In this document: one piece after another, positions 54,353 to 57,028 of the stretch | How the letters are laid out: every line of letters begins with the position of its first letter | Position numbering within the stretch: position 1 is the first letter of the stretch | Assembly: GCF_030681155.1 (NCBI RefSeq) | Contig: NZ_JAUXXE010000002.1 | Coordinates: forward strand, 1 to 64,000 | Origin: Phenylobacterium sp. | GTDB taxonomy: Bacteria; Pseudomonadota; Alphaproteobacteria; Caulobacterales; Caulobacteraceae | Direction of reading: 5' to 3' | DNA length: 64,000 bases | Translations under genes and position numbers: made by a program | Notes under the pieces: model-generated | Database searches by the model: none | Told to the model about the DNA's origin: nothing | What the model saw: only the letters and a program-made list of their open reading frames with translations

Positions 54353-55780
54353 CTAGGCGGCGAGATTCCAAGCAAACTTCAGATCCTCGACGAAGGCCGC
54401 ATAGGCCCTGGCTTTTTCCTGCGCGTCAGGGACCCGCAGTAGAAACGACGGATGATAGGTGACCACGCCCTGGGCCTGGTCGGCGAGTTGAAACGCATGG
54501 CCGCGCGCCTTGCCGATCGGAGTGGGCTTCCCGCACACCGCCAACGCCGCCGTGGCCCCCAGCGCGACAATCACCCGCGGCCGTACGATCCGGCGCTCGG
54601 CGTCCAGCCACCAGCGGCACGCCGTGACCTCCGATGTCTTGGGCGTCTGGTGAATACGGCGCTTACCCCGCAACTCGTGCCGGAAGTGTTTCACGGCGTT
54701 CGTCACATAGAGCTCGGCCCGCGGAACGCCCGCCTCAGCCAGAGCCTGGTCCAGAACCTTGCCGGCCGGGCCGACAAAAGGTTGACCGGCCAGATCTTCC
54801 TGGTCGCCGGGCTGCTCGCCCACGATCATCAGCCTGGCCTTGGCAGGCCCCTCCCCGGCCACGCCCTGAGTCGCATCGCGCCACAGGTCGCAGCGGCGGC
54901 AGAAATCGACGCCCGCCACAACCTCTTCCAGGGACGTCGGCGCGCCTTCCTCAAATGACGCATCCCGCGACAGGCGCTGGGCCTGACGCACCACACGGCG
55001 ATTGGGTTCGGATGGCATTTGCCTGACCATGGCCGAGGTACGGTCCTCTGCGGCTTTGACCAGTTCGGGAATGAGCCCGGCCTCGGGCAGGTTCCGCCAA
55101 TAGCGCTTGGGCATCTCGCGCTGCATAGCGCCCACCTTCAGACGAGCAGGGTTGAAGGTGGAGGCGTAATAGGTGCGCCAATAATCCTCCAGGGCGTCCT
55201 CGCTTGGAGCATCCGCTGGGTCGGCGCCCGGCGTAAACGTCAGCAGCACCTTGTCCCAGTGGGCGCAGCGATCAGGCGTCAGAATGGACCAGTTCATGTT
55301 GGCGTAGCGGCGGGCAAAGAAGGGCGCGGCGGCCTCGGCCACTCGGTGGGCCGGCTCGAACCAGGCCACATAGGTATCCTCGTCCGCGCCCTTGACCTGC
55401 CGAAAACGGACAAAGGCCTTCATCTTGTGGATCGCCTTCGACACCGCGCCGGCCATGTCCCGGGCGCGGGCGACGTCGGGATCCGAAGCGATATGCATCA
55501 GGTTAGGCTCGTTCGCGAGCCGCCACAGCAAGCGATACAACAGAGCGAACCGCTCGCCCGAGCTATGCAGAACCACCTGTTCGGCGACCTCGACGAACTC
55601 TCGCGGAACGGTGAAGCTTGCTGCAGCGGTTGCCGGCTCCGTGGTCTGACCAAACAGATCCCCGCCGCCGTCCACGGTCCAAAGCGCGTCCTCCGGCGAC
55701 ACATCAGCCCCGCGAAGAAGTCGCGCGGCTCGCCGCCAACCATCGAAGTCAGTTTCCGAGGCGAGGCGTACGACCTGCAT
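54353..55780 (-). CDS. UdgX-type uracil-DNA glycosylase fused to DUF4130 domain
   Basis: The N-terminal part (about 1-245) matches the DUF4130/TIGR03915-type domain (DSDP-like segments, MHIASDPDVARARDMA). The C-terminal part (about 290-475) is UdgX, a family 4-related uracil-DNA glycosylase. It keeps GEQPGDQEDLAGQPFVGPAG at 321-340 and the diagnostic KRRIH loop at 373-377. In mycobacterial UdgX the His of that loop (here His377) forms a covalent bond with the excised uracil. FCRRC (Cys294/Cys297) provides two of the Fe-S cluster ligands. The ATG at 55780 shares a base with the upstream radical SAM stop, so they are one operon. Confidence 0.92.
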   Translation of the reverse strand: MQVVRLASETDFDGWRRAARLLRGADVSPEDALWTVDGGGDLFGQTTEPATAAASFTVPREFVEVAEQVVLHSSGERFALLYRLLWRLANEPNLMHIASDPDVARARDMAGAVSKAIHKMKAFVRFRQVKGADEDTYVAWFEPAHRVAEAAAPFFARRYANMNWSILTPDRCAHWDKVLLTFTPGADPADAPSEDALEDYWRTYYASTFNPARLKVGAMQREMPKRYWRNLPEAGLIPELVKAAEDRTSAMVRQMPSEPNRRVVRQAQRLSRDASFEEGAPTSLEEVVAGVDFCRRCDLWRDATQGVAGEGPAKARLMIVGEQPGDQEDLAGQPFVGPAGKVLDQALAEAGVPRAELYVTNAVKHFRHELRGKRRIHQTPKTSEVTACRWWLDAERRIVRPRVIVALGATAALAVCGKPTPIGKARGHAFQLADQAQGVVTYHPSFLLRVPDAQEKARAYAAFVEDLKFAWNLAA

Positions 55781-57000
55781 CAGAACAGGCTCAACTGCTG
55801 GGGCGCGATATGGGTCCGCAAGTCGGCGCGGTCGGTCAGCGAACCTGGACGCCAGTCGTCGGTGATGATGAAGGGCCGCACCTTGTCGAGGCCGCGCGTC
55901 AGGCGCTTCACATCCTCAAGGGTCAAGCGCTTGTAGCGGCGGATCTCGATCATCCGATCGACGCTTTTGACGCCCAGCCCCGGCACCCGCAGCATCGGCT
56001 CGCGATCGGCCTTGTTCAGATCTACCGGGAACCGCGCCCGGTTTTTCAGGGCCCAGGCCAGCTTGGGGTCAATGGCCAGGTCCAGGTTTTCATCGCCGCT
56101 GGCGATTTCAAGCGCCTCGAAACCGTAGAACCGCATCAGCCAATCGGCCTGATAGAGCCTATGCTCGCGCATCAACGGCGGCCGGACGGGAGGCAGGCGC
56201 GACGTGGTGTCCGGGATCGGACTGTAGGCGGAATAGTAGACCCGTCGCATGCCGTAGGCCCCGTAGAGGCCGGCGCTGCGTGACAGGATTTCGCCGTCGC
56301 TAGCGGCGTCGGCGCCGACGATCATCTGGGTCGACTGGCCCGCGGGCGCGAACTTCGGCGGCTTGGCCTTGATCGCCTTGTCGGTGGTTTCCTCGATCCC
56401 CAAGCGCACAGAGCCCATGGCTTTGCGAATGCCCTTGGCGTCCTTTTCCGGCGCGAGGTCGGCCAGGCTGTCGTCCCGAGGTAGCTCGATATTGATCGAC
56501 ACCCGATCGGCATAAAGCGCGGCCTGGTTGACCAGGGCGGGCGAAGCTTCTGGGATGACCTTGAGGTGGATATAGCCGCGAAAGTCGTGGTCGAGCCGCA
56601 GCGACTTGGCCACGCGCACCATCTCTTCCATCGTGTAGTCGGCGTTGCGGATGATCCCCGAGGACAGGAACAACCCCTCGATGTAGTTCCGCTTGTAGAA
56701 GCCGAGGGTGAGGTCGACGACCTCCTTAACGGTGAAGCGGGCGCGGCGCGTGTTCGAAGTCACCCGGTTCACGCAATAGACGCAGTCATAGACACAGAAG
56801 TTGGTCAGCAGAATCTTCAGAAGGCTGATGCAACGGCCATCGGGAGCATAGGCGTGGCAGATACCCATCCCCTCGGTCGAGCCGACGCCCTTACCGCCCA
56901 CCGAGTCGCGCTTGGTCGTGCCTGAGGACGCGCAGGAGGCGTCGTATTTCGCGGCGTCCGATAGGATCGCGAGCTTCTGCTTGAGGTCCAGGCTTGCCAT
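55780..57000 (-). CDS. Putative DNA modification/repair radical SAM protein (TIGR03916-like)
   Basis: The 406-residue protein has the radical SAM cluster LLTNFCVYDCVYCVNRV, i.e. CxxxCxxC at Cys69, Cys73 and Cys76. Extra Cys residues occur earlier (Cys23, Cys48, Cys57). The C-terminus has a helix-hairpin-helix-like segment, MLRVPGLGVKSVDRMIEIRR, consistent with DNA binding. This family co-occurs with UdgX/DUF4130 proteins. It is the first gene of a two-gene operon with a perfect LexA box 14 bases upstream of its ATG. Its reaction is unknown. Confidence 0.9.
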   Translation of the reverse strand: MASLDLKQKLAILSDAAKYDASCASSGTTKRDSVGGKGVGSTEGMGICHAYAPDGRCISLLKILLTNFCVYDCVYCVNRVTSNTRRARFTVKEVVDLTLGFYKRNYIEGLFLSSGIIRNADYTMEEMVRVAKSLRLDHDFRGYIHLKVIPEASPALVNQAALYADRVSINIELPRDDSLADLAPEKDAKGIRKAMGSVRLGIEETTDKAIKAKPPKFAPAGQSTQMIVGADAASDGEILSRSAGLYGAYGMRRVYYSAYSPIPDTTSRLPPVRPPLMREHRLYQADWLMRFYGFEALEIASGDENLDLAIDPKLAWALKNRARFPVDLNKADREPMLRVPGLGVKSVDRMIEIRRYKRLTLEDVKRLTRGLDKVRPFIITDDWRPGSLTDRADLRTHIAPQQLSLF

Positions 57001-57013
57001 GCCTCAAGCTAAT

Positions 57014-57028
57014 GTTCTCATTCTGTTC
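57014..57028 (-). promoter_or_regulatory. LexA (SOS) box in front of the radical SAM-UdgX operon
   Basis: GTTC-TCATTCT-GTTC is an exact match to the alphaproteobacterial LexA site GTTC-N7-GTTC (read here on the plus strand). It lies 14-28 bases upstream of the radical SAM start codon, where bound LexA would repress transcription. Only one such site is visible here. Confidence 0.8.

What the first reader, a model, noticed from the sequence alone, without database searches (positions are those of the whole stretch)
55780..57028. Perfect LexA box controls a radical SAM-UdgX operon
GTTC-N7-GTTC lies 14 bases before the radical SAM start, and the radical SAM and UdgX/DUF4130 genes share a TGATG junction. 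UdgX keeps the KRRIH loop that forms a covalent uracil link in known members, and the radical SAM protein has an HhH-like DNA-binding segment. An SOS-induced pair of this kind points to a DNA repair or base-modification pathway whose radical SAM step is not characterised.
Basis: partly seen in the sequence, partly recalled or inferred. Interest (0 to 1): 0.75.

Follow-up and report, generated by a model that had tools for sequence, protein, structure and literature searches.

The report
SOS-controlled radical SAM–DUF4130 repair operon
A bacterial DNA-damage switch sits in front of a two-gene operon whose constant core is a radical enzyme plus a protein of unknown function, with a uracil-trapping domain fused on as an optional extra; the switch was already known in related bacteria, but what the enzyme does to DNA is still unknown.

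Summary
GTTC-N7-GTTC lies at 57014-57028, 13 bases before a TIGR03916 radical SAM gene that overlaps, by TGATG, a DUF4130-UdgX fusion gene (TIGR03915, TIGR03914). The bare motif is near chance genome-wide, but its place is conserved: perfect in 122 of 126 other alphaproteobacterial loci. In 24 loci from other classes of the phylum it is replaced by CTGT-N8-ACAG (15 perfect, 20 within one mismatch). LexA control is very likely real. It is not new: PMC8565304 reports it for Bacteroidetes and cites it for Verrucomicrobia and Alphaproteobacteria.

The "radical SAM–UdgX pair" needs correcting. In 299 Pseudomonadota genomes all 77 with the radical SAM gene also have DUF4130, while UdgX (over cut-off) is missing in 18 of 77 and occurs without the radical SAM gene in 14 of 73. 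The radical SAM protein has six invariant cysteines, three outside the SAM motif, which suggests a second metal site. Best reading: an SOS-induced radical SAM–DUF4130 DNA-lesion enzyme, with a covalent uracil trap as optional module. Its substrate is unknown.

The parts
57014..57028 (.). LexA (SOS) box GTTC-N7-GTTC; reads GAAC-N7-GAAC on the gene strand
   Evidence: perfect in 122 of 126 other alphaproteobacterial loci; same motif class before lexA, ssb and an imuA-like gene of the same genome
55780..57000 (-). radical SAM gene, TIGR03916 (rSAM_link_UDG), 406 aa
   Evidence: 552.4 bits, cut-off 343.5; PF04055; AF2 mean pLDDT 83.4 with Foldseek hits to radical SAM barrels
56773..56796 (-). CxxxCxxC SAM-cluster motif, C69/C73/C76
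   Evidence: present in 159 of 159 rows
56830..56934 (-). stretch with three further invariant cysteines C23/C48/C57, possible second Fe-S or metal site
   Evidence: each present in 158 of 159 rows; the site itself is inferred
55867..56040 (-). HhH-like segment, residues 321-378
   Evidence: phmmer to 2duy (ComEA-related) E 0.0032; L337, R338, P340, G341, G343 invariant in A1, 74 rows; the A1 profile gave no PDB hit at E 0.01
55778..55782 (-). TGATG stop/start overlap of the two genes
   Evidence: same junction in 62 of 127 alphaproteobacterial loci, the window's own included
54353..55780 (-). DUF4130-UdgX fusion gene, 475 aa
55079..55759 (-). DUF4130 domain (TIGR03915), the constant partner of the radical SAM protein
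   Evidence: 211 bits; PF13566
54374..55075 (-). UdgX domain (TIGR03914)
   Evidence: 327.2 bits; aligned to solved UdgX chains at E 5e-53
54650..54664 (-). UdgX R-loop KRRIH, residues 373-377, nucleophile His377
   Evidence: His present in 147 of 147 rows picked by a UdgX profile

Best explanation
LexA represses the operon through a box 13 bases before the first start codon, and DNA damage induces it together with lexA, ssb and the imuA-like gene (inferred from sequence, not measured). The working core is the radical SAM protein plus DUF4130. I infer that they form one DNA-lesion enzyme: the radical SAM protein binds damaged or gapped DNA through its HhH segment and does radical chemistry on a base or sugar, possibly helped by a second cluster held by C23/C48/C57, while DUF4130 supplies an essential second activity or docks the substrate. 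UdgX, fused to DUF4130 in most members, is an add-on that cuts out uracil and stays bound to the abasic site through its loop histidine, which would shield or mark the site and hold DUF4130 there. Shown here: the box and its conservation, the domain make-up, the co-occurrence, and the conserved residues. Inferred: damage induction in this organism, DNA as substrate, the second cluster, and tethering. The lesion is unknown.
For: Perfect box in 122 of 126 other alphaproteobacterial loci; the 11 permuted direct repeats reach at most 10 of 127 (own locus included). In 24 loci from other classes CTGT-N8-ACAG is perfect in 15 and within one mismatch in 20; permuted palindromes reach 0 and at most 5. 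Radical SAM and DUF4130 co-occur in 77 of 77 radical SAM genomes (77 of 80 DUF4130 genomes), on one contig in all 77 and within 1 kb in 75. Of 80 named loci, 77 have the DUF4130 gene in the fetched stretch, and the genomes of the other three have it elsewhere. UdgX is above its cut-off in 59 of the 77. LexA-type boxes persist before UdgX-less operons: 10 of 17 fetched perfect, 5 with one mismatch, 2 none; the eighteenth, G339, was not fetched. Of three genomes with DUF4130 but no radical SAM match, all keep a perfect LexA box upstream and two have lost the conserved C-terminal end of DUF4130. The UdgX nucleophile His is in 147 of 147 rows.
Against: No substrate, product or phenotype is known. 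No solved structure matches DUF4130 convincingly. G217 keeps a full DUF4130-UdgX gene without a radical SAM match, so the dependence is not absolute, though it is a draft in about 180 contigs. The HhH call is weak (E 0.0032; no profile hit). The operon is patchy: 15 of 35 other genomes of the genus have a match, several of the 35 being incomplete. No induction data for this organism. Four of the 24 non-alpha loci have no CTGT-N8-ACAG box within one mismatch. Of six copies looked at outside these sets, none of six LexA patterns was found in the Bacteroides, Fusobacterium, Acinetobacter and Gemmatirosa copies. With one mismatch allowed the alpha box is in 127 of 127, but permuted controls then reach 7 to 52, so only the perfect matches carry weight.
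Confidence: 0.55

Rival explanations
1. The radical SAM protein exists to undo or process the covalent UdgX-DNA link; the operon is a trap-and-release system.
For: Same operon in most members, and the cross-linking His is never lost in the rows looked at (147 of 147). How UdgX-DNA complexes are resolved is open in print: RecA-dependent pathways or proteases are proposed (PMC10359453, passages).
Against: 18 of 77 radical SAM-DUF4130 genomes have no UdgX above cut-off, and 14 of 73 UdgX genomes have no radical SAM gene above cut-off.
Confidence: 0.12
2. The radical SAM protein is a direct lesion-reversal enzyme of the spore-photoproduct-lyase kind.
For: SOS control beside other repair genes, and PMC3765255 calls the radical SAM proteins associated with DUF4130 SplB-like (figure legend passage).
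Against: No SplB family at E 0.001 in NCBIfam. No photoproduct lyase among the 50 best folds shown of 1,065. All six invariant cysteines lie at or before the SAM motif; the H-donor cysteine of that lyase lies after it (recalled).
Confidence: 0.15
3. The radical SAM protein makes a DNA base modification, or modifies the DUF4130 protein itself, rather than repairing a lesion.
For: NCBIfam names it DNA modification/repair. Strict pairing with DUF4130 would also suit an enzyme-substrate pair.
Against: LexA control and the fused uracil-DNA trap point to damage. Neither chemistry was tested here.
Confidence: 0.15
4. The box is a chance match and the operon is not under LexA.
For: The bare motif is not rare: 133 in the genome against 114 reversed; 5 of 100 window shuffles reach the observed 4.
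Against: Conservation of place in 122 of 126 other alphaproteobacterial loci and the motif switch in other classes. 0 of 508 coding windows of the same loci carry the motif.
Confidence: 0.03

Closest known systems
COG1573-COG4277 operon in SOS regulons (PMC8565304; by citation there Erill 2016 and da Rocha 2008)
   Same: The paper describes the COG1573-COG4277 operon as a uracil-DNA glycosylase-based SOS repair system (passages). That COG4277 is this radical SAM family is recalled, not tested.
   Different: That account treats it as a uracil-glycosylase repair system; the co-occurrence here makes DUF4130 the constant partner and UdgX optional.
NCBIfam TIGR03916 / TIGR03915 / TIGR03914
   Same: All three models pass their cut-offs; the model names already say that they are linked.
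   Different: No function is assigned; the added points here are the loss patterns and the six cysteines.
UdgX of Mycobacterium smegmatis
   Same: Motif A GEQPG, KRRIH loop and HPS motif aligned to solved UdgX chains; residue roles from PMC10359453 (passages).
   Different: Here it is fused behind DUF4130 in a LexA-type operon; the solved UdgX chains are 205-229 aa and match only the UdgX part.
Spore photoproduct lyase / SplB
   Same: Radical SAM fold and a proposed SOS-linked repair role.
   Different: No family or fold match seen here, and a different cysteine pattern (the lyase pattern is recalled).

Membership tests
TIGR03916 radical SAM family | score over the curated cut-off, with CxxxCxxC | tested here: met
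   552.4 against 343.5 bits; C69, C73, C76 in 159 of 159 rows
TIGR03915 / DUF4130 | score over the curated cut-off | tested here: met
   211 against 112.25 bits; PF13566 138 against 27
UdgX (TIGR03914) | motif A GEQPG, R-loop with R107 and H109, motif B HPS | tested here: met
   residue roles from PMC10359453 passages
UdgX (TIGR03914) | covalent cross-link to uracil DNA | not testable with these tools
   needs protein
Alphaproteobacterial LexA regulon | GTTC-N7-GTTC operator near the start, conserved in orthologues, with lexA in the genome | tested here: met
   lexA found with its own box; motif named in PMC8565304
Alphaproteobacterial LexA regulon | LexA binding and damage induction | not testable with these tools
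   no expression or binding data for this organism
Spore photoproduct lyase (SplB) | match to the family or its fold | tested here: not met
   absent from NCBIfam hits at E 0.001 and from the 50 Foldseek hits shown of 1,065; substrate not testable
DHH/RecJ phosphoesterase (for DUF4130) | profile match and conserved DxDG motif | tested here: not met
   weak Foldseek hits only, E 0.024 and up; hhalign probability 0.05% to RecJ; D11 and D13 not among positions conserved at 90% in 151 rows
Anti-phage defence systems (PADLOC-DB) | match to a PADLOC model | tested here: not met
   0 families at E 0.001 for both proteins

The most novel reading that the evidence does not exclude
The radical SAM protein and DUF4130 form a previously undescribed DNA-lesion enzyme with two metal clusters, distinct from spore photoproduct lyase, induced by SOS in Pseudomonadota and (from print) Bacteroidetes. 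UdgX is a covalent tether recruited by fusion, which pins the enzyme to uracil or abasic sites.
Probability: 0.35. Interest if true: 0.8.

Novelty: new member of a known kind. Interest (0 to 1): 0.42.

Why it matters
Few radical SAM enzymes are known to repair DNA (recalled). This one is widespread in Pseudomonadota, kept under damage control while the LexA motif itself changed, and came with DUF4130 in every radical SAM genome that was checked for it (77 of 299; three more). Naming DUF4130 as the constant partner, and UdgX as removable, tells an experimenter which two proteins to purify together and which deletions to compare. It also bears on the open physiological role of UdgX.

Tried and rejected
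DUF4130 as a DHH/RecJ-like nuclease: many of the 50 Foldseek hits shown (of 154) are of that superfamily (membership partly recalled), but the best E is 0.024 and query TM-scores are 0.11-0.32. hhalign to RecJ DHH domains of 12 genomes gave nothing, and the DxDG-like start is not conserved. Rejected for now.

Radical SAM protein as SplB: not supported. Defence system: no PADLOC match. PHROGs: only one weak match in the UdgX part. Five loci with other genes or a gap between radical SAM and DUF4130 were looked at by eye, with no family search; nothing recurrent was seen. Two more (L080, L093) have no DUF4130 in the fetched stretch and one (L112) ends just after the radical SAM gene; the genomes of all three hold DUF4130 elsewhere.

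Corrections on the way. The first census was wrong for minus-strand loci, which were not turned; replace it. In one search some non-alpha start codons were placed badly (11 of 20 perfect); anchors on the aligned start and adds four loci (15 of 24). A first motif count for the R-loop missed KRRLH and similar forms; one search replaces it. Rows are not de-duplicated, were picked by profiles of this family, and hold the window's own locus twice. Rows left out of the genome counts because they were under the cut-off: 10 of 87 radical SAM, 1 of 81 DUF4130 (a remnant in G130) and 151 of 224 UdgX genomes, the last probably ordinary family-4 glycosylases. One of the 80 named loci (L090) is titled only Pseudomonadota and was counted as alphaproteobacterial. 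The structure alignments used 74 rows (A1) and 76 rows (A2), not every locus.

Papers: PMC8565304, PMC3765255, PMC10359453, PMC1839093, PMC9380542, PMC10776899, PMC13130816, PMC9611098, PMC9848294 and PMC12700426: passages only. PMC13384398, PMC12907096 and PMC9578287: term look-up, no hit. PMC3828012: listing only. Erill 2016 and da Rocha 2008: not held, known only through citation in PMC8565304.

Full report
What is there. The minus strand carries a 406-aa radical SAM gene (55780-57000) and, overlapping it by TGATG, a 475-aa gene (54353-55780). The first is TIGR03916; the second is DUF4130 (TIGR03915) followed by UdgX (TIGR03914), all over their curated cut-offs. GTTCTCATTCTGTTC lies at 57014-57028, 13 bases before the radical SAM start. 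The nearest named relative of the radical SAM gene is from Phenylobacterium (80% identity), so the genome is probably of that genus.

Is the box more than chance? Alone, barely: 4 in the window against 1.35 expected, reached in 5 of 100 shuffles, and 133 in the genome against 114 for the reversed motif. In its T-flanked form it is enriched, 18 against 5 reversed. I looked at the genes beside all 18 sites by eye and ran eight of the products through NCBIfam: lexA, ssb, a YifB/comM gene, a PA0069-family radical SAM gene, coaBC, and an imuA-like gene under that family's cut-off; two gave nothing. The window's box therefore looks like the operators of this genome's own SOS genes.

Conservation settles it. 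I took radical SAM loci from 80 named contigs, from relatives and from a phylum sample, turned them all to the gene strand and removed one duplicate. Anchored on the aligned start, 123 of 127 alphaproteobacterial loci (122 of 126 without the window's own) have a perfect box within 200 bases upstream to 20 downstream; 11 permuted half-sites reach 0 to 10 of 127. The four others have a box with one mismatch, which says little alone, since permuted half-sites with one mismatch reach 7 to 52. None of 508 coding windows of the same loci has the motif. In 24 loci of other classes the perfect alpha box is absent. There CTGT-N8-ACAG, the LexA motif of the beta/gamma group (recalled), is perfect in 15 and within one mismatch in 20, while permuted palindromes reach 0 of 24, or at most 5 with one mismatch. 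Four of the 24 (L164-L167) lack it even with one mismatch. The control has followed the change of LexA motif, which is hard to explain without selection for SOS control.

This control is not new. PMC8565304 (passages) reports the COG1573-COG4277 operon under LexA motifs in Bacteroidetes. It says that a uracil-glycosylase repair system was reported before in Verrucomicrobia and Alphaproteobacteria, citing a Verrucomicrobia paper and the Caulobacter SOS paper, neither of which is held. PMC3765255 (figure legend passage) already calls DUF4130 a predicted mutagenesis-related enzyme associated with radical SAM proteins and uracil glycosylases. Searches of an open-licence library for DUF4130, TIGR03916, TIGR03915, COG4277, the NCBI product name and UdgX with radical SAM turned up no test of the function in what I opened; one of the four papers was seen as a listing only. 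An Acinetobacter gene of this product name is up-regulated at 8% humidity (PMC13130816, passage).

The pair is radical SAM plus DUF4130. Across 299 Pseudomonadota genomes, the window's included, 77 have the radical SAM gene, 80 DUF4130 and 73 UdgX over cut-off. All 77 radical SAM genomes have DUF4130, on the same contig, within 1 kb in 75. Of the 80 named loci, 77 show the DUF4130 gene in the fetched stretch; the other three have it elsewhere in the genome, so in at least two of them (the third stretch is cut off) the genes go together without being close neighbours. UdgX over cut-off is missing in 18 of the 77, and 14 of 73 UdgX genomes lack the radical SAM gene. Of the 18 UdgX-less operons, 17 were fetched: 10 have a perfect LexA-type box, 5 one with a single mismatch, 2 none.

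Losses point the same way. In three genomes (G217, G228, G274) a promoter like that of intact operons of the same genus stands in place with a perfect box, no radical SAM match is found, and DUF4130 follows (promoters compared by eye). In two of the three, DUF4130 has lost its conserved C-terminal end. In G217, a draft genome, it is full length, which is against a strict dependence. In G130 a perfect box stands just before a C-terminal remnant of DUF4130 and an uninterrupted UdgX; G110 also keeps such a remnant before UdgX, without a perfect box. UdgX thus survives without the other two.

Residues. In UdgX the loop histidine is present in 147 of 147 rows, motif A Glu in 146, motif A Gln in 145, and the second loop Arg in 146 (rows picked by a UdgX profile). 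These are the residues that PMC10359453 (passages) ties to cross-linking. The radical SAM protein has six invariant cysteines: C69, C73, C76 of the SAM motif in 159 of 159 rows, and C23, C48, C57 in 158 of 159 each. The N-terminal stretch is poorly modelled (pLDDT about 51-59 over residues 21-60), so a second cluster is an inference from conservation. The fold is a radical SAM barrel; the best hits are HydE and MiaB. DUF4130 is modelled well (mean pLDDT 86.5) but has no convincing relative in the PDB.

How it most likely works. Damage removes LexA and the operon is made. Radical SAM and DUF4130 act together on a DNA lesion; UdgX, where fused, captures uracil sites covalently and may hold the pair there. 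This whole sequence is inferred. Against it: no substrate is known, the HhH match is weak, no LexA pattern tried was found before the Bacteroides, Fusobacterium, Acinetobacter and Gemmatirosa copies, and the operon is patchy even within the genus, 15 of 35 other genomes.

Verdict. The unknown chemistry is the real open question.

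Noticed in passing
L231:395-1477 (same genome): A second radical SAM gene, PA0069 family, has a LexA-type box 23 bases before its start.
   Followed up: partly
L189, L190, L191: Three genomes keep a LexA promoter like that of this operon but show no radical SAM match; DUF4130 is shortened in two.
   Followed up: yes
L080, L093: Two named loci have the radical SAM gene without DUF4130 in about 4 kb downstream; their genomes hold DUF4130 elsewhere.
   Followed up: partly
L204:2526-4009: A second, divergent DUF4130-UdgX copy without a radical SAM gene beside it, with CTGTATGGATATACAG just upstream.
   Followed up: partly
L163:5001-6239: An IMG/VR viral contig encodes this radical SAM protein with an alpha LexA box just upstream.
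   Followed up: no
L188:3780-4001: A faecal phage-labelled clone has two near matches to a Gram-positive-type LexA motif (recalled) upstream of the radical SAM gene; seen by eye, no control was run.
   Followed up: no
L184:5989-8051: Radical SAM and DUF4130 with no UdgX gene annotated beside them on an Acinetobacter baumannii plasmid; a similar gene is in records labelled Acinetobacter phage.
   Followed up: no
L232:237-1430 (same genome): A T-flanked LexA-type box lies 70 bases before coaBC, not an obvious SOS gene.
   Followed up: no
G010:C1:2323542-2324728: The radical SAM gene of one relative is split over three adjoining matches, either broken or an assembly error.
   Followed up: no
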